This document shows, piece by piece, positions 29,200 through 56,436 of a DNA stretch of 64,000 nt. The stretch's first letter is position 1, and the number at the start of each line of letters is the position of its first letter. The DNA lies in assembly GCF_900143005.1 (NCBI RefSeq), contig NZ_FRCS01000006.1, positions 62,001 to 126,000 on the forward strand, in the 5' to 3' direction. The position numbers and the translations under genes were made by a program. This stretch comes from Cryptosporangium aurantiacum. GTDB lineage: Bacteria; Actinomycetota; Actinomycetes; Mycobacteriales; Cryptosporangiaceae. The notes beneath the pieces were generated by a model. The model worked only from the letters and a program-made list of their open reading frames with translations. It ran no database searches and was not told where the DNA came from.

Positions 29200-29247
29200 C
29201 CGACCAAACGGGTGTCGCGCTTCCCCGAGCAAGTACCCCAGATCAAT

Positions 29248-29314
29248 GTGGCGCTTTCCGCCTGCGGCGGCGCGGAATGTGGCACCTCCCGTGCCCTGGC
29301 ACGGAAAGCGCCAC
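29248..29314. repeat. REP-like composite palindrome, copy 2
   Basis: The GC-rich hairpin unit (29248-29283, TTCCGC and GCGGAA arms) precedes the 36-bp palindrome (29279-29314). The 36-bp unit matches copy 1 at all but one position and has the same orientation. The GC-rich unit is the reverse complement of that in copy 1. It occupies the gap before the TPR gene. Confidence 0.8.
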
Positions 29315-29448
29315 AACCATCCCCAACGCTACGCGGAAACGGGCGCAACCATGCGTCGACCCGCACGAGAAATGCGCACCGCGCGGGCGGCCGGGACCTG
29401 GCACGATCTGGGGATCACCGTGGACCGCGGCGGTGCCACGGTAAACCC

Positions 29449-40229: not shown

Positions 40230-40269
40230 GGCCATGGCTCCTCCTCGACAGCCGCGCACGGGTTCCCGG

Positions 40270-40296: not shown

Positions 40297-40315
40297 ACGA
40301 GAACCCGTGACGCGC

Positions 40316-40409: not shown

Positions 40410-41102
40410 GTGAGCGACTGGGAGCCACCGATCGCCAACATCGCTGTGGACCTGGTGGTCCTGACGGTGCGGCAGGACGCGCTGCACCTCTTGGTCATCG
40501 AACGCGGCATCGAGCCGTACCGGGGAGCGCTCGCGCTGCCCGGCGGCTTCGTGCAGGAGGACGAGGATCTCCCCGACGCTGCCCGGCGCGAGCTGATGGA
40601 GGAGACCCGGATCCCCGGTGCGCCGCTGCACCTCGAGCAGCTCCGCACCTACGCCGAACCGGGGCGGGATCCCCGCGGCCGGGTCATCTCGGTCGCGTAC
40701 CTGGCGCTCGCCCCGAATCTCCCGACGCCGACCGGCGACACCGATGCCGCTCGTGCCTTCTGGATGCCGGTCAGCCGGCTGACCGGCGCCACCGGCCGGC
40801 CGCTCGCCTTCGACCACGCGAACATCGTGCGCGACGGCATCGAGCGCGCCCGCTCCAAGCTCGAGTACACGACGCTCGCGACGACGTTCTGCCCCGAGCG
40901 CTTCACGATCACCGAGCTACGGCGGGTGTACGAGGTCGTCTGGGGCGCCCGGCTGGACGCCCGCAACTTCCAGCGCAAGGTGCTGAGCACCGAGGGCTTC
41001 GTCGTGCCCACCGGGGAGATCCGGCGCGGGGAAGCCGGACGTCCCGCCCGCCTCTACACGCGCGGGCTCGCCACGAACTTGTTCCCACCGATCGCGCGGT
41101 GA
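40410..41102 (+). CDS. NrtR-type Nudix-related transcriptional regulator
   Basis: A 230-residue fusion of a Nudix domain and a C-terminal winged helix. The Nudix box GGFVQEDEDLPDAARRELME, then ETRI, keeps the catalytic Glu pair and Arg but has Arg for the usual final glycine. The C-terminal segment FTITELRRVYEVVWGARLDA, then RNFQRKVLSTEGFV, is the NrtR HTH. NrtR proteins bind ADP-ribose-type ligands and control NAD metabolism genes. Here, instead of NAD genes, it is coupled by GTGA overlap to a nucleoside phosphorylase fusion. GTG at 40410 has only a weak ribosome site. Confidence 0.87.
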   Translation: MSDWEPPIANIAVDLVVLTVRQDALHLLVIERGIEPYRGALALPGGFVQEDEDLPDAARRELMEETRIPGAPLHLEQLRTYAEPGRDPRGRVISVAYLALAPNLPTPTGDTDAARAFWMPVSRLTGATGRPLAFDHANIVRDGIERARSKLEYTTLATTFCPERFTITELRRVYEVVWGARLDARNFQRKVLSTEGFVVPTGEIRRGEAGRPARLYTRGLATNLFPPIAR

Positions 41103-42520
41103 CAAATACACTCGGTCAGGTGAACCCAGGGGTGGGACCGGGCGGCGTCGTCGTCATTCTGACCGCCCTCGAGCTGGAACACCGGGCCGTGCACCGGCAC
41201 CTGCGCCGGGTGCACACCGTCGTCCACCCGGCGGGCACGATCTTCGACGTGGGCGAACTCGAGGGCTCGACGATCCGGGTCGCGCTGGCGGTGACCGGAC
41301 CCGGCAACACCGGCGCGGGCATCCTCGCCGAACGGTCGATCGCGATGTTCGCCCCGTCGGCCGTGTTCTTCGTCGGCGTCGCGGGCTCGCTCGCCACCGA
41401 CATCGACCTCGGCGACGTCGTGTTCGCGACCCGCGTCTACTTCTACCAGGGCGGGCTCGAGAGCCCGACCGGCTTCTCACCGCGGCCCGCGGCGTGGCCC
41501 GCGCCGCACCGCATCGAACAGCTGGCACGACACGTCAGCCGCACCGGCCAGTTCGGCACGACCGTCCACTTCCGCCCGATCGCCGCGGGTGACGTCGTCC
41601 TCGACTCGCTCGACGGGCCGCTGATCGCCCGGATCCGGCAGAACTACAACGACGCGGCGGCGGTCGAGATGGAGAGCGCCGGGCTCCATCAGGCCGGCCA
41701 GCTGAACGAGTCGTTACCGGTGCTGACCGTGCGCGGCGTGAGCGACCGCGCGGACGGCAAGAAGGAACTCGCCGACCGGCGAGGGCTCCAGCACCGGGCG
41801 GCCGACACCGCTGCCGCGTTCGCCGTCGCGCTGTGCCGTGCGCTCGAATCCGGCCCCGGCCCTCCGGCGACCGTCGCCGAATCCGTGCGAATCTCGACCG
41901 CGGCGCTGCTCCGCGTCCGCGACGACGATCGTTTTATCCTGTTTCACTCGCCCACCCGGCCGGGTGCCTACGGTCCACCCGGCGGCGTCGTGAAACTCCG
42001 TTCGAGCGACGCCCTGGAAGCCGTCGGATTCCGCGCGGAGCCGCGCCGCAACAGCGCCATGCACGGCGACCTCCGCGGCTTCGTCCCGGGTATCGCGCTC
42101 GGCGACTTCCTGCGCTGGTGGCGCACCGGCGCGGACCGCGAGAGCGCGCCGGACTGCCTGCGGCGCGAGCTGGTCGAGGAACTGGCCGAGATCGGCCGTC
42201 CGGATCTGGCGCCGGAAGTGGACGACGTCCCCCTGACCCCGGTGCGTTCGGTGGTCGACGGCCCGTGGAGCGTCCCCGCGGCACCGTACGACCAGCTCCG
42301 CGTGTTCGAGGTCTACGACCTGGCGCCCGGCGACGCCCGCGCCGAGCGATTTCGCCGCACGCTCACCGGTCTCGCCGACGATCCCGCCGAGCCGAGCGTG
42401 ATCTGGGCCGACCGCACCGACATCGAGTACGGACGCTGCGGACCGCACTACATCACGCCGCCCTCGGCGTTCCTGTTCGGCGATCGCCGCATTCACCCCG
42501 ACCTCCCGATGCTGCGATGA
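41099..42520 (+). CDS. Nucleoside phosphorylase (MTAN-like) fused to a Nudix-like effector domain
   Basis: A 473-residue protein. Residues ~15-250 are a purine nucleoside phosphorylase/nucleosidase fold: VVILTALELEHRAV, AVFFVGVAGSLATDIDLGDV, the substrate-binding AAVEMESAGLHQAG near residue 188 and VRGVSDRADGKKEL near 213. Residues ~275-473 form a second domain with AYGPPGGVVKL and CLRRELVEELAEIG, reminiscent of a Nudix fold although the Nudix box is not intact. Such phosphorylase fusions occur in bacterial conflict systems as nucleotide-cleaving or sensing modules (family knowledge, not proven here). GTG at 41099 overlaps the NrtR stop. The last 28 bp overlap the convergent kinase-NTPase gene. 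Confidence 0.75.
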   Translation: MTNTLGQVNPGVGPGGVVVILTALELEHRAVHRHLRRVHTVVHPAGTIFDVGELEGSTIRVALAVTGPGNTGAGILAERSIAMFAPSAVFFVGVAGSLATDIDLGDVVFATRVYFYQGGLESPTGFSPRPAAWPAPHRIEQLARHVSRTGQFGTTVHFRPIAAGDVVLDSLDGPLIARIRQNYNDAAAVEMESAGLHQAGQLNESLPVLTVRGVSDRADGKKELADRRGLQHRAADTAAAFAVALCRALESGPGPPATVAESVRISTAALLRVRDDDRFILFHSPTRPGAYGPPGGVVKLRSSDALEAVGFRAEPRRNSAMHGDLRGFVPGIALGDFLRWWRTGADRESAPDCLRRELVEELAEIGRPDLAPEVDDVPLTPVRSVVDGPWSVPAAPYDQLRVFEVYDLAPGDARAERFRRTLTGLADDPAEPSVIWADRTDIEYGRCGPHYITPPSAFLFGDRRIHPDLPMLR

Positions 42521-45500
42521 CCACCGGCCCCGGGTGCCGGTCGTACCCGGGTGCCCGCGCGGTGCTCGAATCGGCGGCGGAGGCGGAGCAGCGCCGACCG
42601 CACCTCGGCCGGATCATTCCCACCGGCGAACCGATCGGCGAGATACCGCGCGGCGGCTACCGCCTCCGTTCGGGGGATCCAGTGCGCCGCGAGGTTACCG
42701 CCGATCGCGCTCAGCCGTGGATCGTCGCCGATCGACTCCAGCACCGGCTGCCACGCGCCGAGGTACGCGAGCCCGGCCGCTCGTCCGATCGCGACGCTCG
42801 GGTGGGCCCCGGCCGGATCGAGCGCGAGGAGCACGTCCCGGGGTTCGGCGGGGGCGGAACGGCCGAGGTAGCCGAGCGCGGCGGCGGCGTCGGCGAGCAG
42901 CGACACCTCGAGCGGATCCTGGCCGGCGAGGCCGACCGGGGACACGGTCCCCTCCCAGCGCCGGGACACGACCGCGTCGCGCAGCAGGGGTACGGCGTCG
43001 ACGGCGCCGAGCGTGGCGGCGGCGGTCGGTAGCCACGGCTCGACCGGACGGCGTCCGGTCAACCGGTCGACGACCTGTGCACGCAGCCGGACGACGTCGT
43101 CGGCCGCCCACTGCGGACCCGGCGCCGCGAGCTGCGGGAACCGCTGGTTGCCGAGTATCTCGAGCGCGAGGTCGGGGTCGGTCTCGGCCAGGGCGAGCAC
43201 ACCGTCCTGACCTGCGGTGCATCGGGCCAGCGCGGTCGCCCACGGCCAGCGGAACCGTTCCGCGACCCTGCCCGCGGCCAGCCGGCGGTGGGCTGCCCAC
43301 GCGGTGCGGAGGCCCACGGCGCGGTCCCGTCCGGACAACGCGGTCGCCAGGGAGGCGAGGTGCTCGAGGTCGGTCGACTGCCCGGTGGCGACCCGGTCCG
43401 CCGCTGTCACCACGCGCTCTGCCTGCTGCGAGAGCGGCTCGGGGTCCGCGTCCGCGTCGACCGGATCCCCGAGCTCGGCCAGCAGATGGCGGCAGAGCTC
43501 GCCGATCTCGAACGCGGATTGCCGGGCGCGCAGCGCCACCCGGCGTTCGCTCGGCGGGAGACGCTCCACCAGCTGCATCCGCTCGGTCTGCAGCCGGTTC
43601 ACCTCCGGCCCGTCGGGCTGCGCGGGCAGCGAGCGTTCGAGGTCGGCGAGCGCCGCCGCCTCGGTGGCGCGGATCGCACGCTCCAGCGTCGGCGGTGACG
43701 GCAGCGCGAGCGCCCGCGCTGCCCGGACGGCGGCCAGGGCCACGGCGGGGTTCGCGGGATCGATCAGATCGGTGACCAGCCCGCCGAGGCGGCGCAGTCG
43801 CAGGTCCGCCACCGTGGTCAACGCGCTGCGAACGAGTTCGGGCGGGTGGTCGGCGGAGAGCAACGGCGGGACGTGACGGGTCATCACCTGCGCGATCCGG
43901 TCCCGGTTCGCCGGAGCGTCGTCGGCGGCGAGCGCCGCCTGGCGCAGGGCGTCCAGGGCGCGCGTGCGCGCGCTCGGCGTCGCGTTCGGGTCGGCGAACG
44001 CCCGTCGGAGCGCCGCCCACCCGAGCGGCGCTTCGACGGCGGCGAGCGCCGCGGCGGCTTCGGCCTGCTCCGCCGGGACGCCGTCCGGGTCGCGCAGCAC
44101 CGTCTCCAACCGGGCCAGGACCCGCTCCGCCAACCGATCGGGGTCGCGAGGTAGCGCGCCCAGCATCGCCGCAGCCTGCACCGGATCGACGCTCTCCACG
44201 ACGTGGATCAACCCGGCGCCGACGGGCGAAGCGGGGCGCGCCGCCAGCGCCCGGAACACGTCGTCCCACCGGGGGCGGAGCACGAATCGCGCCGGGTCCG
44301 GAGCGGCGCCCAGCCACCGCGCCGCGAAGTAGTCGCGTTCGGTCCGACCCGCGAAGTCCAGCCGTGCGCCGGACCGCACGAGCAGCCCGGCGTCGAGCAA
44401 CGGGCCGAGGCGGTCGGCACCGCTCGGTTCGGGCGGCGCGGGGACGACGTCCGGGTCGGTGCGGTGCGCGGCGAGCGCTTCGGCGTAGGCGACGATCTCC
44501 GGGTCGTCCCACTCGTCCGCCAGCGCGCCGTAGTACTTCTCCAGCAGGCGGACGTCGGCGCGGACCGCCGGACCATCGAACGACGATTCCGGTACCTGCG
44601 CGATCGTGGCGACGAGCAGCGGTCCGCACCGTCCGTCGGCGACGAAGTGCGACCACCGGCCGTCGCCGACGACCGCGGCCGCGGGGTGCCTCCCCCGGCT
44701 GCGCAGGTGGTCGACCGCGTCGACGAGCGTCACCGGGAGCAGCCGCACGGTCGACCAACCGCTCGGCTGCCCGTCCGGACGCGGGTCTCCCCCGGTGAGG
44801 CAGATCGCCACCGCCGGGTACCGGGCCCGGAAACTCTCCGCCTCGGCCAGCACGGCCCGGCGGGCCTCGACCGGCAGTCGTCCTGGCTCGTCGACCAGGA
44901 CGTGGACGGCACCGGCTCCGAGCAGCGCCTCGACCGGCTCCACCGACGCCCCCGCGAGCGCCGTGCGCACTGCCGGTTCGAACCAGCCGGCGATCGCGTC
45001 CGGGCCGGGTACCGCCAGCCGGACCGGGATCCGGCCGGTGGAGTGACCGGCGAGCAGCGTGCGCTCCACCATCCGCAGCAGCGTCGACCGTCCGGACCCG
45101 ACGGTGCCGACCAGCACGGTGTGCGTGCGATCCAGCACCGCGGACAGCGCGGGCACGATCGCGGAATCGACCTCCGCGGACAACGGAATGGCCGGATAGC
45201 CGTCGTCCTCCGGCGCCCGGAGCCCGGCGCGGCGCACGGCCGCCGCCGCGATCCGCGCGCGGAACGGCCGGAGCGCGTCCACCGGCACGTCGTCGGTGGC
45301 CGCGCCCCGCACCGCCGCGCCCCGGTCCACCGCGCCCCGGACCACCGCGCCGCGCACCACCGCGGCGAGGAATGCCGCGGACCGCTCGGGCTCCCCCGGG
45401 CTGCTCGGGACCGCGGGAACCCCGTCCAGCAACGGGGCGAGACGCGCCACCGCCGCCGTCAGCTCCTCCGGGCGCCACCACGTGAGCCCATCGCCGGGCG

Positions 45501-47070
45501 CGCTGAGCGTTTCGGTAGCGACGGCGGCGATCGCGAGCTGCGCCCGCCAGACAGCGTCGGTGTGGGTGTCGTCCGCCCACTTCATCGCCCGGTGCGCCGA
45601 GAGCAGCAGCGTCGCGAGGTACTCGTGCCACCACACTGGCTTCGCACGGCCCGGATAGATGCGCTGGGCGTGGCGCCGGATCGTGCCGAGCACCAGCACC
45701 GCAGCGACGGCCGCCTCGCCGCGGTCAGCGACGTGCTCGGCGAGGCGTGCGGTCACCTCTGCGTGCCGGTCGGCCGGGAGCAGGTCGGCGACGCGGTCGC
45801 CCAGCAGCAGCAGCCGTTGGATCGCGACCAGATCCGGAAAGCTCAGCGCCTCGGCCAGCGGCGCGCGGAGCAGGTTGAGTTCCAGCCAGGCCAGGTCGGT
45901 CAGGATCGGCCGCGACGAGCCGCCGCGTGCGTAATCGATCAGGTAGGCCTGCTCGCGGGCGAACAGGACGTTACCCGGGTTGAGATCGCCGTGGATACTC
46001 GCCGTCGCCGCGGCCTCGACCGGCTCGGACAGCACGCGGCGCAGCGCGGCGAACGGATGGGCGGCGCGACAGCCGTCCACGCTGATCGCGCCGTCGTCCT
46101 CGAGCCGCAGACCGGGCAGCGCCGCTCGCAACTGCTCCCACCGGCGGGCGGAGCGGCCGTCGAGCACCGAACCGCGCAGGTCGCTCACGTCGATCGGCGC
46201 GGGGACGTGGCCGCCCGCCGGGACGATCCCGACCGTGACGCCGTCGCGGGTCACTACCTGCCGGTCACCGTCCACGGGTCGGAAGCCTCGGAGCCGGACG
46301 AGGCATCCGGGTTCCGGTCCGGCGGGGTCGTCCAAGCCTGGCACGTGGAAGGCGGCGTCCAGGACGTCGTCCGGATAGACGTAGCGGGCCTCCGACCCCG
46401 GCGGCCCGTACGTCCACCGGCCCTCGGCGTCGAGGCCGTCGACCAGGAGCCGCAGCTCGGGCCCGAGCCGCCAGCGGCGTACCTCCCGGAGTCCCGGCCC
46501 GTCGGCGACCTGATGCTTCGCGTACAGCGCCTCCCCCACCCGGTCGAGGAAGTCGTCGAGCAGGTGGACCGCGCGTCGCCGGGCCCGCGGCCCCGCCATC
46601 GCCGCGGCGATCACGTCGCCGAGGGACTCCGGTGGGAGGCCAGGTTTACCGACGAAGGACCCGAGGTCGGTGTAGAGGACCGCCTCGCCCTCCTCCTCGA
46701 TCGCCGTGGCCGGGTCGAGCACGCCGGTGGTGACGGCCTCGATCGGGACGAAGAGCGCCCGCCGCTCCTCGGCCATGCCGCGGAACGCGTCCCACTCCCG
46801 GAGAGCCTCGGCGGGTGATCCGAGTTTCGCGACGTACTGCGTCGTCGCGCGTCCGCGGTGGGCGACCACCCCCAGCACGAGCGCGCCGCCGCGCCCCTCG
46901 TTGTACATGCGGACGACGTCGAGCGTGTCGGGTGACGTCGCGAGCCGGCCTTCGCCGGGTCCGATCGCGAGGCGCCGGAGCACCGCCCGGATCCGCCCGG
47001 CGGGGAAGGCCTCGGAGGTAAAACCGTCCGGGACACCAACGGGCACCGGGGACTCGCGTTCCTCCGTCAT
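42493..47070 (-). CDS. Giant APH-like kinase / P-loop NTPase / HEAT-repeat protein
   Basis: A 1525-residue multidomain protein. The N-terminal ~500 residues contain the phosphotransferase catalytic loop SIHGDLNPGNVLF (near residue 360) and YLIDYARGG (near 377), an aminoglycoside-phosphotransferase/choline-kinase-like fold. A repeat-encoded linker VVRGA follows near 585. Then comes a STAND-like NTPase with VLVGTVGSGRSTLLRMV near 650-665, Arg replacing the Walker A Lys, and Walker B VHVLVDEPG near 720. The remaining ~600 residues are Ala/Leu-rich HEAT-like helices. It resembles kinases of predicted ternary conflict systems (possibly the TCAD9 type, from memory). ATG at 47070 is preferred to 47082. 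It is divergent from the 119-residue gene. Confidence 0.75.
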   Translation of the reverse strand: MTEERESPVPVGVPDGFTSEAFPAGRIRAVLRRLAIGPGEGRLATSPDTLDVVRMYNEGRGGALVLGVVAHRGRATTQYVAKLGSPAEALREWDAFRGMAEERRALFVPIEAVTTGVLDPATAIEEEGEAVLYTDLGSFVGKPGLPPESLGDVIAAAMAGPRARRRAVHLLDDFLDRVGEALYAKHQVADGPGLREVRRWRLGPELRLLVDGLDAEGRWTYGPPGSEARYVYPDDVLDAAFHVPGLDDPAGPEPGCLVRLRGFRPVDGDRQVVTRDGVTVGIVPAGGHVPAPIDVSDLRGSVLDGRSARRWEQLRAALPGLRLEDDGAISVDGCRAAHPFAALRRVLSEPVEAAATASIHGDLNPGNVLFAREQAYLIDYARGGSSRPILTDLAWLELNLLRAPLAEALSFPDLVAIQRLLLLGDRVADLLPADRHAEVTARLAEHVADRGEAAVAAVLVLGTIRRHAQRIYPGRAKPVWWHEYLATLLLSAHRAMKWADDTHTDAVWRAQLAIAAVATETLSAPGDGLTWWRPEELTAAVARLAPLLDGVPAVPSSPGEPERSAAFLAAVVRGAVVRGAVDRGAAVRGAATDDVPVDALRPFRARIAAAAVRRAGLRAPEDDGYPAIPLSAEVDSAIVPALSAVLDRTHTVLVGTVGSGRSTLLRMVERTLLAGHSTGRIPVRLAVPGPDAIAGWFEPAVRTALAGASVEPVEALLGAGAVHVLVDEPGRLPVEARRAVLAEAESFRARYPAVAICLTGGDPRPDGQPSGWSTVRLLPVTLVDAVDHLRSRGRHPAAAVVGDGRWSHFVADGRCGPLLVATIAQVPESSFDGPAVRADVRLLEKYYGALADEWDDPEIVAYAEALAAHRTDPDVVPAPPEPSGADRLGPLLDAGLLVRSGARLDFAGRTERDYFAARWLGAAPDPARFVLRPRWDDVFRALAARPASPVGAGLIHVVESVDPVQAAAMLGALPRDPDRLAERVLARLETVLRDPDGVPAEQAEAAAALAAVEAPLGWAALRRAFADPNATPSARTRALDALRQAALAADDAPANRDRIAQVMTRHVPPLLSADHPPELVRSALTTVADLRLRRLGGLVTDLIDPANPAVALAAVRAARALALPSPPTLERAIRATEAAALADLERSLPAQPDGPEVNRLQTERMQLVERLPPSERRVALRARQSAFEIGELCRHLLAELGDPVDADADPEPLSQQAERVVTAADRVATGQSTDLEHLASLATALSGRDRAVGLRTAWAAHRRLAAGRVAERFRWPWATALARCTAGQDGVLALAETDPDLALEILGNQRFPQLAAPGPQWAADDVVRLRAQVVDRLTGRRPVEPWLPTAAATLGAVDAVPLLRDAVVSRRWEGTVSPVGLAGQDPLEVSLLADAAAALGYLGRSAPAEPRDVLLALDPAGAHPSVAIGRAAGLAYLGAWQPVLESIGDDPRLSAIGGNLAAHWIPRTEAVAAARYLADRFAGGNDPAEVRSALLRLRRRFEHRAGTRVRPAPGAGGHRSIGRSG
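45301..45360 (-). repeat. 15-bp tandem repeat in the kinase-NTPase linker
   Basis: Four 15-bp units (plus strand CGCGCCCCGCACCGC and variants at 45301, 45316, 45331, 45346), encoding VVRGA/AVRGA pentapeptides between the kinase and NTPase domains. Probably length-variable. Confidence 0.75.
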
Positions 47071-47123
47071 GCTACGGATCATCCCGGCCCGGCGCCGGGG
47101 ACGGCACGCTCGGGGGAGGGACA

Positions 47124-47487: not shown

Positions 47488-50400
47488 TCAGACGCCGGTG
47501 TGCCGGTAGGCGGCCCACCTCGTCAGGGGCACTGCCGAGTTGCGCTCGGCGCGGACCACGCGGTGCAGCGCGTGGGCGGCCGACCGGCTGGGGTCGCCGT
47601 CCAGAGCGGCGTAGAACGAGCTGGCCAGCTCCGGTGCCGCCTCGTCACCGATCGACCAGTCCGCGGCGACCACCTGGCGGTAACCGGCGATCACCAGGGC
47701 ACCCGACAGGTCGAGCGCTTCGTCGGGCACGTCCGGGTCGATCGCCGCACCGTCGCACGAGGACAGGTACGCGAACTCGGCCCGCGCGAGCGCCAGCTGC
47801 GCGATCGCGGAGGCGGGCAGCTCTCCGTCGTCCAGGCGCAGACTGGCGTCGCCGGGATGCTCGGTTCCGGGGCCGCTGTGGCCGGCGAAGTGCAGCCAGC
47901 CGTGCCTGGTCAGACCGGCGAGGACGGCCGCGCGGTTGGCGTCGGACGAGAGCAGCAGCTCGGCGTCGCCGCCCGCACTCGTCCGGCGGGCGACGTCGTA
48001 CACGGACCGGGCTTCCTCCTCAGCCCGCGCCAGGTCGGCACCGCACCCGACCGCCAGCAGCGTCGGACGCGGATCGGCGGGCCGGTCACGAGCCTCCAGG
48101 AGCGCGGCGAGCGTCGGCGTGTAGCTGGACACCACCCGGTCGAGCGCACCGGTGTCGGCGAGCGTCGCAGCGTCGTAGTACTGCGCCGCGTGCAGCGGGA
48201 GCAACGCCAGCACACTGGCCGGACACCACCACAGCCGCGGCCAGTCGTCGCTGCGCGGGAGCAACGCCAGCCGGTCGAGGATCGGCCCGACGACCGTTCG
48301 CCACGACCACGCCAGCAGTGTGCGGAGTTCGTCCTCGGCGGTCTCCCCTCGTCGGATCCGTGCGGTCGCCCGGAAGTACACGCGCAGCGCCCTCGCCAGC
48401 GCGTCGGCGGTCAGCTGTCCGAGCGGGCAGAGCACGAGGGAGTCCTCGGTCAGTACGAGCGCGTCGCACCGGATCGTGCTCACGTTGACCAGCACGACGG
48501 GCCCGCCCTCGGCGACGGCTCTCAGCTCGGCGTAGCGACGCGATCGGCCGAGTTCGACGCCGAGTCGCGTCCGCACCTCGGCGCGTAGTTCGTCCCACGT
48601 CCGAGCCAGCTCACGACGTCGTTCGGCGCGGGCGATCGCCGCGGTCGAGGCCGGGCCGGCGAGCGAGCCGGGCGCGAGGCCCTCGGTGTCGTTCCAGGCC
48701 TCACGAACGGCCTCTAGGCGGTCGGCCAGGGCGGCGTCCAGCGCCCGGACCGGGGCGAGGTCTCCGCGAAGCTCGAGGATCTGGCCGTGCAGTACTCCGC
48801 GGCCTGCCTCCAGTACCTCGACGGCCCGCTCCGGGCGGCCTGCCTGCAGCGCGACCGCACCGGCGGCGCTGCCAAGTCCGGCGACCAGCGCGAGCAGGTG
48901 CCTGCGGTCGGTCCAGCGCAGCCCGTGCCACGCGACCGCGGGCAGGAGGTCCAGCGCGGCCTCGAAACCGGCCAGCGCGCGGTCCCAGCGTCGGGCCGGG
49001 ACGTTCCGGCCGGCCGATTCGAGCCCTCGGAGCCGGAGCACCTGGAGGGCACCCCACGACCGCGCCGCACGGAGCCGCACGAGCGGTGGAGCGGTAGGAA
49101 GCCGTGCCGCGCGCCGGTAGGCGTTGACAGCGGTCGCGGCGTCCCGGACCGCGCCGGTCAGCTCGAACCGCGCCCGGAGCGCGTTCCCGAGCCCGGCCAG
49201 TGCGGTCGCCAGATCGGGGTGGCCGGCCGGGAGCGAACGGACCGCCCGTCGGCCGATCCGGATCGCCTGGTCGAGGGACCGCCGGTGCCCGGTCGTGTCG
49301 AATCGGGCGTGCAGCGCGGCGCCGAGGTTGTTCAGGTAGCCGGCCCGGCCCGGGTGCCCGGGCAGGCTCAACCGCACCGCGCGCCAACCCGCCGCCACCG
49401 CGTCGTCGATCAACGCAAGAGGACCGGACGACGGCGCGGCCCCGGCGTCCGACCGATGCTCGAACCGGAGCCGCAACGCGGCACAGAGGTTCGAGTAGAC
49501 CGCGGCGTGCTCCGCGGTCGGCGGCCGGTCGACCGCGGATCGCAGGTGCTCCACCGCCAGGTCCAGCGCGACCGGGTCTCGTTCGATCTGCCACCGGTAC
49601 AACGCGGCCAGCCCGCGGTTGCTCACGACCGTCCAGCGGTCCGGGTCGCTGCTCGGGCTCCGGGACAACACCTCGTCCAGCCGGCGCTCCGCCTCCCGCA
49701 GGTCGCCGGCGCTCCCGGTGTGCACGGCCCGGGACTGGAGAGCCGAGGCGAGCTGGGCGACCCGGAGGCGGTAGGTACGGCGTTCCGGCGGTGTGATCCG
49801 GACGGCAGTCAAACAGCTGTCGACGGCCTGGTCGAGGTCGGTGGTGTCACCGGTCCGCTCGAAGCGAACCCGGTACACCCCGCCGAGGTTCGCGAGCGTG
49901 CGTGCGTGTTCCTCGGTGTCCGGTGTGGTGTCGTCGCGCGCGACGGTGAGCAGGTCGATCGCCGCCGTGGCGTCGACCAGTTCACCGGTCGCGGCGAACC
50001 GCGCCTCGTGGGCCAGCGCCAGCTGCGCCAGCGCGAGCGCACGTCCGGGCAGCTCGTCCCAGCTCTCGACGGCGGACCACCCGGCCTCGATCGCGTCTTC
50101 GATCCGCAGCGGATCAGCGGTGACCTCGAACAGGCGGTGCAGCACCACGCACCGCTGCGCGAGCGCGGGCGGGCGGTCGGCGTGGTCGGCGGGCAGCTCG
50201 CGCAACGCCCGGTCGGTGGCGTCGAGCGCAGCGTGCAGATCCGGAAGCGGGTCGAGCCGGATCCGGGACCGGGCGAGTACCACGACCGCGAGGTTGACCA
50301 GCCGAGCCGGCCGGTGGAGCCGGTCGGAGGCCGCGCACGCCGTGTTCGCGGCGGCGACCGCGCGGTCGTGATCCTCCGGGGAGCCGTCCCGCTCGGCCCG

Positions 50401-51189
50401 GGCATGCAGGCACAGCGCGAGGGTGTTGGCCGTGAGCCCCGGGTCGGGGTCGTCGGGGGGAACGAGCTCGACGGCGTCCACGGCCCGCGCGACCGCCTCG
50501 TCCAGTTCGGCCGGTGGCCCGCCGCGCTCGTGGTGTTCCCGCAAGGCGTCGGCGAGGTACGCCAGGCGCAACGAACGCGCGCCGACCGGAGCGTCCGGCT
50601 CGTCGGCGAGCCCGCGCAGCACGCGGATCGCGCGATCGAGACGTGCCGGGTACCGGGCATCCTGGGCGTCGTAGAACAGGAGGCCCGCTCCGGTCGTGCG
50701 GATCGTCGCCTCCTCGGGGTGGGACGAGATCGTCGGCAGATCGAGTCCGAGCACCGCGGCGACCCGGATCAGCCAGGGCCGGGGTGTGTTCCGGGCCAGG
50801 TGGAACAGGTCGACGATCGTGTCGTGCCGGAAGCCGATCGGATCGGACACCGGGATCCGCTCGCAGTAGCCGGTGAACTCCGCGGCGACCAGCTCGGCGA
50901 CACCGCCGTAGAGCACACGCAGGAGGTCCGCGGCGCGCGCCAGCTCGGCGAGCGTATTGCCCGGGTCGGTAGCGGTAGCGCTCACATACCGTGCCCAGCG
51001 GACCCCGGCTGCCAGCTGCACCAGCCGTGCGTCGATCACGGCCTCGTCGTCGTCGCGCGGCCGTAACGCTGCGGCTTCCAGGCGGGCGACGAGGTCGTCC
51101 GCCTCCGGAGTGAACAGCGTGCGGTCCCGGGTGATGTCGGTGATCGCCCCCAGCAGAGCGACCACCGCGTCAACCAGTGGATCGGTCAC
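47488..51189 (-). CDS. TPR-CHAT caspase-like protein 1
   Basis: A 1233-residue protein. After an N-terminal helical region come many TPR-type repeats of the CHAT-associated kind (for example LANLGGVYRVRFERTGDTTD and YLNNLGAALHARFDTTGHRR), up to about residue 800, then a C-terminal CHAT domain. CHAT (Caspase HetF Associated with TPRs) proteins are cysteine proteases; the catalytic pair is His1104 in GWLHFAGHSG and Cys1145 in YLSSCDGA. The proteolytic target is unknown. GTG at 51189 is 1 nt after the stop of the second CHAT gene with GGAG upstream, so the two are coupled. Activation by a partner sensed through the TPRs is expected from family knowledge. Confidence 0.88.
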   Translation of the reverse strand: MTDPLVDAVVALLGAITDITRDRTLFTPEADDLVARLEAAALRPRDDDEAVIDARLVQLAAGVRWARYVSATATDPGNTLAELARAADLLRVLYGGVAELVAAEFTGYCERIPVSDPIGFRHDTIVDLFHLARNTPRPWLIRVAAVLGLDLPTISSHPEEATIRTTGAGLLFYDAQDARYPARLDRAIRVLRGLADEPDAPVGARSLRLAYLADALREHHERGGPPAELDEAVARAVDAVELVPPDDPDPGLTANTLALCLHARAERDGSPEDHDRAVAAANTACAASDRLHRPARLVNLAVVVLARSRIRLDPLPDLHAALDATDRALRELPADHADRPPALAQRCVVLHRLFEVTADPLRIEDAIEAGWSAVESWDELPGRALALAQLALAHEARFAATGELVDATAAIDLLTVARDDTTPDTEEHARTLANLGGVYRVRFERTGDTTDLDQAVDSCLTAVRITPPERRTYRLRVAQLASALQSRAVHTGSAGDLREAERRLDEVLSRSPSSDPDRWTVVSNRGLAALYRWQIERDPVALDLAVEHLRSAVDRPPTAEHAAVYSNLCAALRLRFEHRSDAGAAPSSGPLALIDDAVAAGWRAVRLSLPGHPGRAGYLNNLGAALHARFDTTGHRRSLDQAIRIGRRAVRSLPAGHPDLATALAGLGNALRARFELTGAVRDAATAVNAYRRAARLPTAPPLVRLRAARSWGALQVLRLRGLESAGRNVPARRWDRALAGFEAALDLLPAVAWHGLRWTDRRHLLALVAGLGSAAGAVALQAGRPERAVEVLEAGRGVLHGQILELRGDLAPVRALDAALADRLEAVREAWNDTEGLAPGSLAGPASTAAIARAERRRELARTWDELRAEVRTRLGVELGRSRRYAELRAVAEGGPVVLVNVSTIRCDALVLTEDSLVLCPLGQLTADALARALRVYFRATARIRRGETAEDELRTLLAWSWRTVVGPILDRLALLPRSDDWPRLWWCPASVLALLPLHAAQYYDAATLADTGALDRVVSSYTPTLAALLEARDRPADPRPTLLAVGCGADLARAEEEARSVYDVARRTSAGGDAELLLSSDANRAAVLAGLTRHGWLHFAGHSGPGTEHPGDASLRLDDGELPASAIAQLALARAEFAYLSSCDGAAIDPDVPDEALDLSGALVIAGYRQVVAADWSIGDEAAPELASSFYAALDGDPSRSAAHALHRVVRAERNSAVPLTRWAAYRHTGV

Positions 51190-51190
51190 G

Positions 51191-54100
51191 TCACGCTCCG
51201 ATGTGGCAGTAGGCGGCCCAGGACAGCAGCGGCCCGGTAGCGCGCAGCTCCCGCACGGCGGCGTGCAGCGCGACGGCGGCCGGTACGCGTTCGGCGGGCT
51301 CTCGCGCGCTCGGTTCGGACAGCGCGCGGAGCGCGTCGTACACCGAGCCGGCGAGGCGAGGTCCGACGTCGTCCGGGACCGGCCAGAGCGCCGCGACGAC
51401 CTGGCGGTAGCCCGCGATCTGGAAACCGGCGGCGGTGGAGAACGCCTCGTCCGGCAGCTCGACCCCGGTCAACGCCGTCTCGCAGGAGGACAGGAACGCG
51501 AACTCACCCGACGCCCGGAGCGCGGCCAGCTGGAACACCGTGAGCGGGCGGTCGGCGAGCCGGAGACCACCACGCCCGGGCGCACCCAGCCGTTGCTCGG
51601 CGTGGCCGGCGAAGTGGAGCCAGGAGTGGCGGACGACCGCATCGGTCACCGCCGCCCAGGTGGCCGCCGCGTCGGCGAGCTCGGTCCGGGGACGGTCGCC
51701 GAGGTGTCCGGCCACCACCGAGGTCTCTTCCGCCGCGTACGGCAGCTCGGGCCGGTCCGGTGTGCCGGCGAGCGTCACCAGCACCGCGGACACCGGCGGG
51801 GCGTCGGCCGGCCGGCGCGAGCGCCGCAGCGCGTCCAGCGTGGACGCGTACGACGAGACGACGCGGTCCGGCAGACCGCTGTCGCGGTATTCCTCGGGCA
51901 GGTAACGCTGCGCGGCGTGCAGCGGCAGCAGCGAGAGCAGACCGGTCGGGATCCACCACACTCGCGGGAGATCGGCCGATCGTTCCGGCCAGGCGAGGGC
52001 CTCGGCTACCGGCGCGGCGACCGTCCGCCACAGCCAGGCGAGCGTGTCCCGGAGGCGCGCGTCGAGCGCCCGAACGTCCGGGTCCGGCCGCCGCAATCCG
52101 TCGAGCATGCCCAGGTGGTGGCGGGCGGCCCGCTCCACGGCGGCGGGCGTCAGGCCGGGGAGCGGCACGACGGCGGGTCCGGCGGCGGTCACCACGAGCG
52201 CGTCGCTGCGCAGCGCGCTGACGTTGACCAGCACGATCGTGTCCCCGCCCGCCGTGACCGCCCGCGACGAGAAGGACGCGGGTGCGAGGAACCGCTCGAA
52301 GCCCGGCAGCGTGCGGGCCCGCGCCACCAGTTCGTCCCAGCGCGCGGCGAGCCGCACCCGGTCGTCCCGGATCAGGCGGTCGACCGCCTCGTCGCGATCG
52401 GCGGCAGGCAGCGGCACGAGCGCGCTCTCGGCCTCGTAGTGGTCGAGCCGGTCGCGGACCTCGGCGAGCTCGGCCGCGACGTCCGGGGCGATCCGGGCCA
52501 GGTCGGCGAAGTCGTCCCTGCGGTGCAGGATCTGCGCCCAGACCACCGACCGTCCGAGCTCCAGCAACTCGACGGCCCGCTCGGGCCGGCCGCACGCCAC
52601 GGCGCAGGCCGCCGCGTCCGAGGCCAGCCCCGACCACAGCGCGAGCTGCTGCTCCTGGGCCTGCCGGTCGACGCCCTGCCCACCGGCCCTGGGCAGCAGC
52701 TCGATCGCGGCCGTGTAGTCGGTCAGCGCCGCGTCGAGATCACCCGCGTCGGCGAGCAGGCGGGCCGCGCTGTACGCCGCACCCACGCGCACCGTCACGG
52801 GGGCCGCTACCTCGGCGGACGCTGCGCGCCACCGGTCGGCGGCCTCCCGCCACCCGCCCGGTCGCCGTGTTCGCTCGTACCGCGCGCGGAGCAGGACGGC
52901 GAGGTTGGACAGCATGCGCGCGTGGTCGGGGTCGGGGTCGGCACCGTTGGTCGAAGCCGCCACCGCCCGCCGCTGGACGCGGATGGCCTCCCGGAGGTCC
53001 GCGGCGTCGCCGGTGAGGTGGTATCGCGCCGCCAGCGCACCGGCGAGGTCGGCCAGCCGCGACCGGTACGACCGGTGACGGCGGGCGGTGAGCGCGAGCG
53101 CGTGCCGATGGGCGTCCACCCGGAGGCCGGCCACCTCCCGGCCGACCGCGGCGTCGCTGTCGTCGGCACCGAGGAGCGTGTTGCCGAACGTCGACCAGAC
53201 CGAGGCGGACTCGGGTGCGTCCGGCCGGAGCGCGTCGACCGCAGCGGCCGCCGCGCGAAGGGCCACCTGCCGGTCGGCGTCGGGGGCCGGATCCCGGCGG
53301 GTGGGGTCGCGGGCGTCCCGGCGGGTGCGGTCGCGGGCGTCCCGGCCGCCGTGGGCATCCCGGCGGGCGCGGGTGTGGGCGTGGCGCAGTTGGCGGACCG
53401 TGGCGACGTTGGCCAGCCGCGCGGCGGTGAGCGGATCGTCCGGCCGCAGCGCGGCTGCCGCCTGTTCCGCGGCGTGCACCGCGTCGTCCAGGTCGGCGGG
53501 CATGCGCAGTCGCTGGAAGCGGGCGTGCAACGCGGACGCGAGGTTGGTCCAGGCGGCAGCGGTCTCCTGCGGTGGCGCGGCGGCTTCGTCCACGGCCTCC
53601 CGGCCGTACCGGACGGCGGCGTCCAGGTCGTCGGTGGCTCCGGTGAGCAGGAACCGGGCCCGCGCGGCGTCGCTCAGGTTGATCAAGCAGCGACGGCGCA
53701 GTGGCGTACCCGGCCCGCAGCGGTCCAGCGCTGCGGTGACGGCCGCCGTACCGGCTTCCAGGTCGGCCTTCGGGTCCGGCCCGGCACCCCGCTCGAACCG
53801 GAGGAGCAGCGCCGCGCCGAGGATGGCGAGGAAGAGCCCTCGCTCGGTGGAGGCCGGTGGGGTGGCCGCCACCGCGGACCCAGCGACCTCCACGGCCTCG
53901 GTGATGTCCGCTCGGCGTCCGATGAGGAGATACTTGATCCGGAGCGCGGCTGCCAGATTCGCCAGGCGGCGCGCACCGAGCGCCGGGTGCGCGGACCGGC
54001 TGCGCACCGCCCGGCGGCAGAGGCGCACGGCCTCGGTGGCGTCGCGCGAGTTCTGCTGCTGCTCGGCGCGGGTCGCCAGGGCGATCGCCACGGCGATCAG

Positions 54101-54868
54101 GTGGTCCGGACGATCGGGGTGCCTGACCGGGATGAGGTTCGCGGCCGCCTGCGCTGCCTCGACCGCCTCGTCGACGTCGGCGGCGTCCCCGGTGCCCGCG
54201 TGCCTGCGGAGCAGCGCGGTGCTCAGATGCAGCGAGTAGGCGGCCGAACCGGGAAGGTCCCGGTCCCTGGCCAGGGCGACCGCGCGCCGTCCGGCGTCGA
54301 TCGCTTCGTCGAGAGCCGACCGGTCGCCGACGAGTTCGTGGCGCATCTCGAGCATCGCGCTGAGGTTCGAGAGGTACTCGGGGAGCCATTCGTCGTCGTC
54401 GGTGGTTCGCGCCACCGCCTCTCGGGCCGCCTCGATCGCCGCGCTCGCCAGCTCGAGCCGATCGTCGGCATCGAGCGGCAGTTCCGCGAGCTGCGCGAGG
54501 GAGGCGGCGAGCGTCGAGTAGTAGCGCCCCAGGTCGGGGTCGTCGTCGGGGACGCCGAGGACGGCCTCCTGGGCGAGCGAGACCGACTCGGTCAGGTCCT
54601 CGACCCGGCCGGTCCGGCTCGCGCGGACGCCGAGCGCCGCGGCCAGGTTCGCCTGCCGGTTGGCGCGCACGAGCGCGACGTCGTGGGCTCCGGACGCCTC
54701 GCGGGCGTCCGGAGCGTCCACAGCGTCCAGCGCGCGGCGGGACAGCGTGACCGCGCGCTCCAACGCGGTCGGGGAGCCGGTGCGAAGGGATTCGTGCAGC
54801 GCCTCGATACTCGCTGCCTCGTCGTCCCCGGTCGCAGTCGTCCCGGTCGCACCGGACGCGGCCCCCAC
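51191..54868 (-). CDS. TPR-CHAT caspase-like protein 2
   Basis: A 1225-residue paralogue of the adjacent CHAT protein, with the same order: TPR array (for example WTNLASALHARFQRLRMPAD) then C-terminal CHAT domain with His1089 in SWLHFAGHAE and Cys1129 in FLSSCETA. The sequences align in the CHAT region (VVSSYASTLDALRRSR here, VVSSYTPTLAALLEAR there) but diverge in the repeats, which suggests an old duplication with different inputs. An Arg/Asp-rich linker near residue 515 is encoded by tandem repeats. GTG at 54868 lies 8 nt after the acyl-CoA ligase stop without a good ribosome site, implying translational coupling to that gene. Confidence 0.87.
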   Translation of the reverse strand: MGAASGATGTTATGDDEAASIEALHESLRTGSPTALERAVTLSRRALDAVDAPDAREASGAHDVALVRANRQANLAAALGVRASRTGRVEDLTESVSLAQEAVLGVPDDDPDLGRYYSTLAASLAQLAELPLDADDRLELASAAIEAAREAVARTTDDDEWLPEYLSNLSAMLEMRHELVGDRSALDEAIDAGRRAVALARDRDLPGSAAYSLHLSTALLRRHAGTGDAADVDEAVEAAQAAANLIPVRHPDRPDHLIAVAIALATRAEQQQNSRDATEAVRLCRRAVRSRSAHPALGARRLANLAAALRIKYLLIGRRADITEAVEVAGSAVAATPPASTERGLFLAILGAALLLRFERGAGPDPKADLEAGTAAVTAALDRCGPGTPLRRRCLINLSDAARARFLLTGATDDLDAAVRYGREAVDEAAAPPQETAAAWTNLASALHARFQRLRMPADLDDAVHAAEQAAAALRPDDPLTAARLANVATVRQLRHAHTRARRDAHGGRDARDRTRRDARDPTRRDPAPDADRQVALRAAAAAVDALRPDAPESASVWSTFGNTLLGADDSDAAVGREVAGLRVDAHRHALALTARRHRSYRSRLADLAGALAARYHLTGDAADLREAIRVQRRAVAASTNGADPDPDHARMLSNLAVLLRARYERTRRPGGWREAADRWRAASAEVAAPVTVRVGAAYSAARLLADAGDLDAALTDYTAAIELLPRAGGQGVDRQAQEQQLALWSGLASDAAACAVACGRPERAVELLELGRSVVWAQILHRRDDFADLARIAPDVAAELAEVRDRLDHYEAESALVPLPAADRDEAVDRLIRDDRVRLAARWDELVARARTLPGFERFLAPASFSSRAVTAGGDTIVLVNVSALRSDALVVTAAGPAVVPLPGLTPAAVERAARHHLGMLDGLRRPDPDVRALDARLRDTLAWLWRTVAAPVAEALAWPERSADLPRVWWIPTGLLSLLPLHAAQRYLPEEYRDSGLPDRVVSSYASTLDALRRSRRPADAPPVSAVLVTLAGTPDRPELPYAAEETSVVAGHLGDRPRTELADAAATWAAVTDAVVRHSWLHFAGHAEQRLGAPGRGGLRLADRPLTVFQLAALRASGEFAFLSSCETALTGVELPDEAFSTAAGFQIAGYRQVVAALWPVPDDVGPRLAGSVYDALRALSEPSAREPAERVPAAVALHAAVRELRATGPLLSWAAYCHIGA
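53292..53339 (-). repeat. 24-bp tandem repeat in TPR-CHAT protein 2
   Basis: Two near-identical 24-bp units (53292-53315, 53316-53339; begin TCCCGGCGGGTG), followed by degenerate copies to about 53388. Encodes the Arg/Asp-rich RRDARDPT-type linker inside the TPR region. Confidence 0.7.
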
Positions 54869-54876: not shown

Positions 54877-56436
54877 CTAGCTGAGTTCCCGCTTGAGGAT
54901 CTTCCCGGTGGCGGTCATCGGCAGCGCGTCGACGAACTGGACGATGCGCGGGTACTTGTACGCGGCCATCTGCTCCTTCGCCCAGGCGACGAGTTGCTCC
55001 TCGGTGGTCGTCGCGCCCTCCACCGGGATGATGAACGCCTTGATCTCCTCGCCGTGGCTCTCGTGCGGCACGCCGATCACGGCGGCCAGCGAGACGTCGG
55101 GGTGGGTCATCAGGACCTCTTCGATCTCCCGCGGATACACGTTGAAGCCGCCGCGGATGATCATGTCCTTCGAGCGGTCGACGATGTAGTACCAGCCGTC
55201 GGCGTCGCGGCGCGCCAGGTCTCCGGAGCGGAACCAGCCGTCGCGGATGGCCTCCTCGGTGGCTTCCGGACGCTGGTAGTAGCCCTTCATGATGTTGTGG
55301 CCCTTGATCGCGATCTCGCCGACCGCGTCCGGCGTCCACTCGATCTCGTCCCAGGTGCCCGGCTGGAGCAACGTCATCTGGACGCCGGGGATCGGCGTGC
55401 CGATCGAACCGGGCCGGGCCGGCTCACCGAAGTGCGAGAAGCTCGCGACCGGCGAGGTCTCCGACAGGCCGTAGCCCTCCAGGATCGTGACGCCGAACCG
55501 CTTCTCGAAGTCCCGGTGCACCTCGACCGGCAACGCGGAGCCACCGGCGGCGGCGACCCGCAGGTTCCGGGCGATCTTCGCGACGTCCACCGAGTCGTCC
55601 AGCGCGCCGAGCAGCCCCCAGTACATCGTGGGGACGCCGGCGAAGAACGTGACGTCTTCCTTCTGCATCAGGGCCAGCGCCGGTTTCGCCTCGAACCGCG
55701 GTAGCAGGACGACCGTGCCGCCGAACGCGAACGCGCCGTTCTGGATGACGGTCTGGCCGAACGAGTGGAACAACGGCAGCACGCAGAGGAACGTGTCCGG
55801 CCGCTCGGCGTCGGCCTGGAACAGGTCGGTACCGATCAGCGCGTTGTCGCGCATGTTGCGGTGACGCAGTTCGGCGCCCTTGGGCCGGCCGGTGGTGCCG
55901 GACGTGTAGAGGATCACCGCGGTGTCGTCCTCATCCACCGCGACGGACTCGAACGTGCCGGGTTGGCCGGCCATCCCGGCGCCGAGCGTCTCGGCACCCT
56001 CGATCGGGGACGCCGCCGCGGGATCGACGGTGATCACGAAGAAGTGCTCGCAGCCGGGGATCTCGTTGAACCCGGCCCAGCCCTCGGCGCCGATCGGCAG
56101 TTCGGGCGTGCCCTGGAAGCAGAAGTACGCCTTCGCGTCGGAGTCGTCGAGGTGGTACGCGACCTCGCGGCCCTTGAGCAGGATGTTCAGCGGGACGACC
56201 GTCGCTCCGGCCTTGAGGATCCCGTAGTAGACGATCGGGAAGTACGGCAGGTTGGGGCAGGAGAGCGCGACCTTGTCCCCCGGCTGGATGCCGCGCGCGA
56301 CCAGCAGGTTCGCGACCTGGTTCGCGGCGCCATTGATCTGCGCGTAGGTCAGCCGGAGGTCGCCCAGGACAACCGCGACGCGCTCGGGATAGGTGGCGGC
56401 GGAGTCCTCCAGCAGCGAGGAGAGAGTCTTCGGCAT
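54877..56436 (-). CDS. AMP-forming long-chain acyl-CoA ligase
   Basis: A 519-residue ANL enzyme with the phosphate loop ILYTSGTTGRPKGAELRHRN near residue 175, A5 motif EGYGLSETSPVASF, hinge GWFRSGDLARRD and catalytic lysine TGKILKREL at the extreme C-terminus. By overall style a long-chain fatty acid-CoA ligase (FadD-like). ATG at 56436 has AAAGGG upstream. Its stop is 8 nt from the start of the second TPR-CHAT gene on the same strand, so the ligase and both CHAT proteins are probably one transcript. Whether the ligase belongs to the conflict-like system or is simply the upstream host gene is not clear. Confidence 0.9.
   Translation of the reverse strand: MPKTLSSLLEDSAATYPERVAVVLGDLRLTYAQINGAANQVANLLVARGIQPGDKVALSCPNLPYFPIVYYGILKAGATVVPLNILLKGREVAYHLDDSDAKAYFCFQGTPELPIGAEGWAGFNEIPGCEHFFVITVDPAAASPIEGAETLGAGMAGQPGTFESVAVDEDDTAVILYTSGTTGRPKGAELRHRNMRDNALIGTDLFQADAERPDTFLCVLPLFHSFGQTVIQNGAFAFGGTVVLLPRFEAKPALALMQKEDVTFFAGVPTMYWGLLGALDDSVDVAKIARNLRVAAAGGSALPVEVHRDFEKRFGVTILEGYGLSETSPVASFSHFGEPARPGSIGTPIPGVQMTLLQPGTWDEIEWTPDAVGEIAIKGHNIMKGYYQRPEATEEAIRDGWFRSGDLARRDADGWYYIVDRSKDMIIRGGFNVYPREIEEVLMTHPDVSLAAVIGVPHESHGEEIKAFIIPVEGATTTEEQLVAWAKEQMAAYKYPRIVQFVDALPMTATGKILKRELS

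What the first reader, a model, noticed from the sequence alone, without database searches (positions are those of the whole stretch)
47488..54868. Tandem paralogous TPR-CHAT genes with a 1-nt gap
Two proteins of almost identical length (1233 and 1225 residues) and identical architecture keep complete His/Cys pairs, yet their TPR arrays have diverged. Most CHAT proteases are single effectors. A coupled pair of intact ones suggests a heterodimer, a protease cascade, or two sensors feeding one output.
Basis: partly seen in the sequence, partly recalled or inferred. Interest (0 to 1): 0.7.

Follow-up and report, generated by a model that had tools for sequence, protein, structure and literature searches.

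The report
Twin caspase-like proteases beside immune switch
Two neighbouring bacterial genes encode similar protein-cutting enzymes of the caspase type that probably act with a neighbouring ATP-driven switch against invaders such as viruses; having two of them side by side is uncommon, and whether they work together is untested.

Summary
Two intact TPR-CHAT genes (1233 and 1225 aa) lie head to tail with a 1-nt gap; both keep the His/Cys pair that is invariant in 87 relatives. They are not a recent duplication: 36% identical, and each is as far from the other as from a single-copy Saccharothrix protein. Pairing is not conserved: another gene matching my CHAT model lies near 5 of 80 named loci (a lower bound), and no congener examined has the pair or TCAD9.

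What is conserved is the surroundings. A TCAD9-NTPase gene runs divergently from a small Pfam-dark Cys protein in 15 of 18 TCAD9 loci. TPR-CHATs of this family (5 loci) and caspase-helicase fusions (2) recur beside it. The window is a rearranged TCAD9 locus with two TPR-CHATs and a PNP-NUDIX gene. A predicted model of protein B resembles Csx29 and separase. Most likely this is an accessory NTPase-gated conflict system with two TPR-CHAT effectors that differ in trigger or substrate. New variant of a known kind; moderate interest.

The parts
51191..54868 (-). TPR-CHAT protein A (1225 aa from GTG 54868); CHAT about residues 941-1224, dyad H1089/C1129
47488..51189 (-). TPR-CHAT protein B (1233 aa); CHAT about residues 960-1232, dyad H1104/C1145; predicted helical superhelix plus C-terminal caspase/separase-like fold
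51190..51190 (-). 1-nt gap between A and B, with a GGAG upstream of B's start codon
47124..47483 (+). small Cys protein (119 aa, no Pfam hit): predicted N-terminal helices and C-terminal CP-x3-C-x-R...C motif; converges on B with 4 nt between
42493..47082 (-). TCAD9 (APH-kinase-like loop HGDLNPGN...LIDY) followed by a P-loop region (Walker A reads GSGRST) and a helical-repeat-like tail (HEAT by eye, no Pfam hit); start ATG at 47082 or 47070
41099..42520 (+). PNP_UDP_1 + Sa_NUDIX protein, tail to tail with the TCAD9 gene (28-nt overlap); the listed ORF opens at 40307 but the domains begin near 41150 and GTG 41099 is a candidate start
39597..40259 (-). hydrophobic 220-aa protein with no Pfam hit, probably multi-pass membrane by eye; possible member of the same island (inference)
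54877..56436 (-). AMP-binding (FadD-like) ligase just upstream of A; counterparts in two congeners have other neighbours, so probably a bystander at the island edge

Best explanation
The pair belongs to an accessory, strain-specific conflict (anti-invader) locus built on a TCAD9-NTPase protein of STAND type (the STAND label is an inference) and a divergently encoded small Cys protein. Inferred mechanism: the TCAD9/P-loop/helical-repeat protein is the regulated switch that reads out invasion; the small protein is an adaptor; A and B are caspase/separase-fold cysteine peptidases whose TPR superhelices receive the signal and allosterically open the His/Cys site, cutting a host or partner protein and stopping growth; the PNP-NUDIX protein is a parallel nucleotide-acting arm. 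The two copies most likely have divided labour (different trigger or substrate feeding one response) rather than forming an obligate heterodimer. Shown: gene layout, domains, intact dyads, old divergence, the conserved TCAD9/small-protein core, recurrence of caspase-fold proteases there. Inferred: signal, allostery, substrate, outcome, division of labour.
For: TCAD9 at E 1.3e-138 next to the pair. Of 18 TCAD9 loci compared, 15 have the small protein, always on the opposite strand and divergent from TCAD9 (14, window; the search model was built from ten sequences that include window, L070 and L074). A TPR-CHAT of this family is at 5 of the 18 (window, L074, L162, L166, L169); caspase C14-helicase fusions lie on the far side of the small protein at L157 and L159; another CHAT protein at L158 above cut-off and at L070 below it. 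A, B and the TCAD9-linked L074/L162 proteins group together (86/97); on that 40-row tree, whose rows I selected, the TCAD9-linked label needs 2 changes against 5.7 for shuffled labels, 0 of 500 shuffles as low, but L074/L162 and L166/L169 are near-copies, which favours clustering. The model of B (pLDDT 84.8, pTM 0.84) aligns with Csx29 (Z 33.1, 527 residues, rmsd 6.8) and separase (Z 28.5, 310 residues, rmsd 2.9). Csx29 H615/C658, needed for cleavage by mutation (passages of PMC10028731), align with the dyad columns by my count along the alignment. The APH-type loop is kept in 18 of 18 TCAD9 proteins. Accessory nature: TCAD9 over cut-off in 1 of 5 family genomes, 4 of 298 order genomes, 2 of 394 class genomes, the window's own genome counted in each.
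Against: I found no test of a TCAD9 system for defence: of two papers listed for 'TCAD9' one is a figure-legend mention and the other I saw in the listing only. PADLOC gives nothing for A, B or the small protein and only mads_8 at E 0.049 for the TCAD9 protein. AAA_22 in the TCAD9 protein is below Pfam's cut-off (21.7 against 27 bits); the window's Walker A has Arg for Lys, while 15 of 17 others keep GK[ST], so NTP hydrolysis is doubtful here. In the window the CHAT genes converge on the small protein, and the Sa_NUDIX gene lies on the other side and is fused to PNP, so co-regulation is not a given. Only L074 of the 80 TPR-CHAT loci carried TCAD9 in its flanks, so the association is one way. 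Three of 18 TCAD9 loci lack the small protein in my search (L154, L160, L164). Division of labour between A and B rests on divergence alone.
Confidence: 0.57

Rival explanations
1. A and B act as an obligate pair: a heterodimer or a two-step protease cascade (one activates the other) under the TCAD9 switch.
For: 1-nt gap with a ribosome-binding-like GGAG, hence possible translational coupling; both dyads intact despite old divergence; both fall near the same TCAD9-linked lineage and an A+B clade is not rejected (AU p 0.247); other local CHAT pairs occur: L170 two TPR-CHATs 657 nt apart, 50% identical; L151 convergent, 56%; L107 two abutting CHAT genes of different subfamilies; L074 and L162 have further, different CHAT proteins nearby.
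Against: Pairing not conserved: one TPR-CHAT of this family in each of the four other TCAD9 loci that have any; another CHAT-model gene at 5 of 80 loci (lower bound); one close pair among 38 listed genes in 24 other genomes (lower bound). No complex prediction was possible.
Confidence: 0.2
2. Plain redundancy or replacement: A and B are two independently acquired or anciently duplicated TPR-CHATs kept in a locus that swaps effectors; one may be in the course of replacing the other.
For: A and B are not best hits of each other in the sample (B ranks A ninth, in a set that was selected with B as the confirming query; A's first 11 listed hits do not include B); distances A-B, A-Saccharothrix and B-Saccharothrix are alike (CHAT 47, 49, 47%); the genes beside TCAD9 and the small protein vary.
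Against: Both remain intact with similar retention of conserved sites; grouping of A and B with the same TCAD9-linked proteins argues for shared history in this system.
Confidence: 0.17
3. The pair has nothing to do with TCAD9: it is cotranscribed with the upstream AMP-binding ligase gene and serves metabolism or development.
For: Only 8 nt separate the ligase stop from the GTG taken as A's start.
Against: The ligase's counterparts in G002 (88% identity) and G001 (67%) stand among other genes, whereas TPR-CHAT next to TCAD9 recurs in 4 other loci.
Confidence: 0.06

Closest known systems
Csx29 / TPR-CHAT of type III-E CRISPR (Craspase)
   Same: TPR superhelix followed by a C-terminal CHAT caspase-like domain; His/Cys columns align with H615/C658
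   Different: About 13% identity in the structural alignment, which leaves the N-terminal 480 or so residues of the model unmatched; no Cas7-11, Csx30 or Csx31 family among the 16 window proteins scanned; a TCAD9-NTPase gene is beside it instead
Separase
   Same: Helical superhelix plus caspase-type protease domain; C-terminal 310 residues superpose at 2.9 A
   Different: Eukaryotic cohesin protease; about 17% identity over those residues; function not comparable
Ternary NTP-dependent conflict systems (vWA-MoxR-VMAP, iSTAND; PMC7159879, passages)
   Same: Multi-component NTPase-regulated loci in multicellular bacteria with caspase-like peptidases, NUDIX and other exchangeable effectors; TCAD9 is described as associated with vWA-MoxR-VMAP in a figure legend of PMC10910872 and sits beside a VMAP gene at L160
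   Different: No vWA, MoxR or VMAP family among the 16 window proteins scanned; core here is TCAD9-NTPase plus a small Cys protein
canu caspase-nuclease defence (PMC12799240, abstract and passages)
   Same: Caspase-family protease acting in an anti-phage pathway with a partner
   Different: No nuclease beside the pair; protease is CHAT with TPR, two copies

Membership tests
CHAT (PF12770) caspase-like peptidases | Pfam CHAT over gathering score | tested here: met
   117.2 and 110.5 bits against 24
CHAT (PF12770) caspase-like peptidases | catalytic His and Cys | tested here: met
   H1089/C1129 and H1104/C1145, invariant in 87 relatives; columns align with Csx29 H615/C658
CHAT (PF12770) caspase-like peptidases | caspase/separase fold | tested here: met
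   for B only, predicted model; A was not modelled
CHAT (PF12770) caspase-like peptidases | peptidase activity | not testable with these tools
   needs biochemistry
TCAD9-NTPase conflict locus | TCAD9 domain | tested here: met
   PF19974 463.2 bits against 40
TCAD9-NTPase conflict locus | STAND-type P-loop NTPase with working Walker A | tested here: inconclusive
   AAA_22 below cut-off; Walker A GSGRST, Lys replaced by Arg
TCAD9-NTPase conflict locus | HEAT-type repeats at the C-terminus | tested here: inconclusive
   tail is similar to that of other TCAD9 proteins but no Pfam repeat family was hit; HEAT is a label by eye
TCAD9-NTPase conflict locus | divergent small Cys protein | tested here: met
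   47124-47483(+) against TCAD9 start 47070 or 47082(-); seen in 15 of 18 TCAD9 loci
vWA-MoxR-VMAP ternary system | vWA, MoxR and VMAP genes together | tested here: not met
   none among the 16 window proteins scanned with Pfam; genes outside these were not scanned
Craspase (type III-E CRISPR) | Cas7-11 beside the TPR-CHAT gene | tested here: not met
   none among the 16 window proteins scanned; no search for CRISPR arrays was made
canu | gated nuclease next to a caspase-type gene | tested here: not met
   no nuclease family in the genes beside the pair; the only hit with such a name among the 16 proteins is PF01042 'Endoribonuclease L-PSP' at 31801-32226, 15 kb away

The most novel reading that the evidence does not exclude
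A bacterial two-protease caspase relay: paired TPR-CHAT proteases, each reading its own signal through a diverged TPR superhelix, licensed by a kinase-like TCAD9/NTPase switch and a small Cys adaptor, in the manner of initiator and executioner caspases under an apoptosome, with a nucleotide-cleaving PNP-NUDIX arm in parallel.
Probability: 0.13. Interest if true: 0.8.

Novelty: new variant of a known kind. Interest (0 to 1): 0.45.

Why it matters
If TCAD9 loci are NTPase-gated caspase systems, they extend the list of prokaryotic immune pathways that end in a caspase-fold protease, and the conserved divergent TCAD9/small-protein core gives a handle to find and test them. The tandem pair is a natural case for asking whether bacteria use more than one caspase-like enzyme in a single pathway.

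Tried and rejected
Recent tandem duplication: rejected, since A and B are not each other's best hits in the sample and are as distant from one another as from the Saccharothrix protein. Whether A and B are sisters at all is unresolved: B groups with L074/L162 at 80/40, and holding A+B together is not rejected (AU p 0.247). The 80 loci were confirmed against B as first row of A1, which helps B find close rows and weighs against A in B's ranking.

Decay of one copy: no difference between the copies in retention of conserved positions, though both are low; dN/dS was not attempted, as no close orthologues were found. B deviates a little more near the Cys (T to G at Cys+2, L to D at 1177), noted but not decisive.

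Mobile-element borders: no tRNA gene in the window; flanking genes match scattered places in congeners, in match lists that were partly capped, so no clean empty site was defined.

Small protein fold: AlphaFold2 model pLDDT 84.9, pTM 0.52, but Foldseek gave no match at E 0.001 or better, so 'ribbon' is a label from the Cys pattern, not a result. The six invariant columns hold for the 24 sequences I put into; variants that I left out of that alignment (for example L151, L075, L112) lack one of the Cys.

TCAD9 at G611 (L154): no small protein and no CHAT found there; L160 and L164 also lack the small protein in my search. At L164 the TCAD9 frame is short (594 aa).

Plasmid collection: 29 records hold a relative of A, none with one place covering 80% or more. 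Pairs there were not examined.

Limits of the counts: my CHAT model (five sequences) missed at least one gene that Pfam calls CHAT (L107:12107-14971), so counts of second CHAT genes are lower bounds. L111 was left out of that count because its two pieces look like one split gene (6 of 80 with it). G510:C1:6903031 and 6903688 were counted as one gene (same 1305-aa frame). Seven of the 18 TCAD9 loci come from one genus (g33: L071, L163, L165-L169), so counts are not independent. In one search only five candidates per genome were scored and only matches at E 1e-60 listed. Of the 80 named loci, 10 had 4.2 kb or less on one or both sides. The 40 rows of the second tree were chosen by me out of 92. 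Of the neighbours of TCAD9 genes only selected ones were given to Pfam. In one search many TCAD9 frames, as called, overlap the small gene at their 5' ends, so distances between them are not exact.

Papers: PMC7159879, PMC8195603, PMC10910872, PMC10028731 and PMC12799240 were seen as passages, besides the start of some abstracts in listings. Other papers were seen in search listings only.
Full report
What is there. Genes A (51191-54868, minus, 1225 aa) and B (47488-51189, minus, 1233 aa) are separated by one base, with a GGAG just ahead of B's GTG. Both end in a CHAT domain with the His/Cys pair intact. They are homologous over most of their length (36% over 1073 aa, E 2e-92). Pfam recognises TPR families only in B. 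A's length depends on the start chosen, 8 nt behind an AMP-binding ligase gene.

How old is the pair. In the C-terminal 540 residues, B finds A only ninth and A's first 11 listed hits do not include B; the sample had been confirmed against B, which biases the first of these. Identities of A-B, A-L074 and B-L074 (L074: single-copy protein of this family in Saccharothrix carnea) are 47.1, 49.1 and 47.2% for CHAT and 32.9, 35.4 and 31.7% for the TPR part. On a 40-row tree A, B, L074 and L162 group together (86/97), with the order inside unresolved and an A+B clade not rejected (AU p 0.247). An 89-row quick tree gave A, B and L074 as one group at SH-aLRT 95. So this is an old divergence, not a fresh duplication. 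At 94 positions conserved in 87 other proteins A keeps 81 and B 78 (others: mean 88.3, SD 3.6, 5th percentile 82, minimum 76). Both are somewhat divergent and neither stands out as decaying against the other.

Is pairing conserved. In the genus, G001 has one relative (L055) and G003 two separate single genes (L056, L057), while G002 gave only weak TPR matches; none of the three has TCAD9 over cut-off. Of 80 named actinobacterial loci, 5 (L074, L099, L105, L107, L151) hold another gene matched by my CHAT model in the fetched flanks. Only L105 and L107, which are nearly the same locus, have abutting same-strand CHAT genes; in L107 these are 16 nt apart as called and 28% identical in the matched part, of different subfamilies, without TCAD9. 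The model misses some CHAT genes, for example L107:12107-14971, so these are lower bounds. In a draw of 246 class genomes, 24 besides the window's have matches at E 1e-60 or better, 38 genes in all after merging two pieces of one, and one close pair turned up: L170, 657 nt apart, 50% identical. Pairs therefore arise repeatedly but are uncommon, and I saw no other in a TCAD9 locus with two genes of this family.

What the surroundings are. The neighbour 42493-47082(-) has a TCAD9 domain (463 bits), a P-loop region (AAA_22 below cut-off) and a helical-repeat-like tail without a Pfam hit. Its kinase-like loop (HGDLN..N..IDY/F) is kept in 18 of 18 compared proteins, while the window's Walker A reads GSGRST; 15 of the 17 others keep GK[ST], L157 has lost it and L164 is truncated. 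TCAD9 over cut-off was found in 4 of 298 order genomes, 2 of 394 class genomes and 16 of 390 genomes of the family of G191; the sets overlap. I compared 18 distinct TCAD9 loci. A small protein is present in 15 of the 18, always divergent from the TCAD9 gene by strand; in a 24-sequence alignment it has invariant C11, C90-P91, C95, R97 and C108, window numbering. Beside it come variable genes: Sa_NUDIX together with a 372-376-aa protein that looks like a nucleotide-cyclase fold by eye but has no Pfam hit (L070, L072, L074, L158, L159, L162, L164); TPR-CHAT in L074, L162, L166, L169 and the window; caspase-helicase fusions in L157 and L159; a pPIWI-RE protein at L072. L160 has TCAD9 beside a VMAP-EAD2 gene, which ties TCAD9 to the published ternary systems. 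The window has the same core but a different layout: the CHAT pair converges on the small protein, and the Sa_NUDIX domain is fused to a PNP domain on the far side of TCAD9. Results against a strict one-protease rule: L074 has two further CHAT genes of other kinds about 1.3-5 kb beyond its TPR-CHAT, and L162 has a TPR_12-CHAT gene beyond TCAD9 plus a CHAT fragment.

The small protein is not confined to TCAD9 loci. A model of its C-terminus finds it near the TPR-CHAT in 27 of 84 loci, window and L074 included, in 20 of the 27 head to head with the TPR-CHAT gene. A family of about 326 aa, membrane proteins by eye, is within 5 kb of the TPR-CHAT in 30 of the 84; the window is not among them.

Structure. 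AlphaFold2 with a 30-row alignment gives B (residues 40-1233) pLDDT 84.8 and pTM 0.84, with a low-confidence first 140 residues or so, a long helical superhelix and a C-terminal alpha/beta domain. Best structural neighbours are Csx29 (Z 33.1, 527 residues, rmsd 6.8) and separase (Z 28.5, 310 residues, rmsd 2.9); Foldseek ranks human separase first (E 7.7e-15) and Csx29 sixth. In Csx29, H615 and C658 are needed for cleavage and are repositioned through the TPR domain on activation (passages of PMC10028731); by my count along the alignment these residues fall on the window family's dyad columns. That is the basis for proposing TPR-driven allostery, which remains an inference here. A was not modelled.

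Island. The upstream ligase has counterparts at 88% (G002) and 67% (G001); in the 18 kb fetched around each, no called gene matched a CHAT or TCAD9 gene of the window at E 1e-10. The locus is thus accessory in this strain; its exact borders were not found.

Interpretation. The conserved unit is the TCAD9 locus, not the protease pair. The pair is best read as two TPR-CHAT effectors of one NTPase-gated conflict locus, probably with divided labour. A heterodimer or cascade is possible but unsupported by conservation. Novelty lies in the combination (TCAD9, small Cys protein, two TPR-CHATs, PNP-NUDIX). I found no paper on it in searches of the held library, which lacks most subscription journals. 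After checking the text against the calls, the confidence of the best explanation was lowered from 0.58 to 0.57, because the NTPase and repeat parts of the TCAD9 protein rest on sub-threshold or by-eye evidence, and the ligase rival was raised from 0.05 to 0.06.

Noticed in passing
window 42493-47082(-): Walker A of the TCAD9-NTPase protein reads GSGRST (Lys to Arg) while the kinase-like loop is intact; 15 of 17 other TCAD9 proteins keep GK[ST].
   Followed up: partly
L056:5884-10048 and many of 84 TPR-CHAT loci: Recurrent actinobacterial neighbourhood of TPR-CHAT, small Cys protein (27 of 84) and a membrane-like protein of about 326 aa (30 of 84); the three small proteins of such loci that I scanned apart from the window's (L056, L104, L074) had no Pfam hit and the one membrane-like protein scanned (L056) none over cut-off.
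   Followed up: partly
L157:5976-9047 and L159:11260-14622: Caspase C14-helicase fusion proteins beside the small protein of TCAD9 loci.
   Followed up: no
L160:4439-5788(-): VMAP protein with EAD2 directly beside a TCAD9 gene, linking TCAD9 to vWA-MoxR-VMAP systems.
   Followed up: no
L074:6639-7757 and L070:5504-6634: Conserved 372-376-aa protein without Pfam hit next to Sa_NUDIX in seven TCAD9 loci, resembling a nucleotide-cyclase-type domain by eye.
   Followed up: no
window 29212-31701(+): 829-aa protein with an extensive TPR_12 array elsewhere in the window.
   Followed up: no
G000:C1:1419859 and 1422115 (L058): A second pair of neighbouring CHAT-domain genes in the same genome, of a different kind and size.
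   Followed up: partly
L105 and L107: Nearly identical CHAT clusters in records labelled Rhodococcus rhodnii and Kibdelosporangium aridum: recent transfer or a mislabelled assembly.
   Followed up: no
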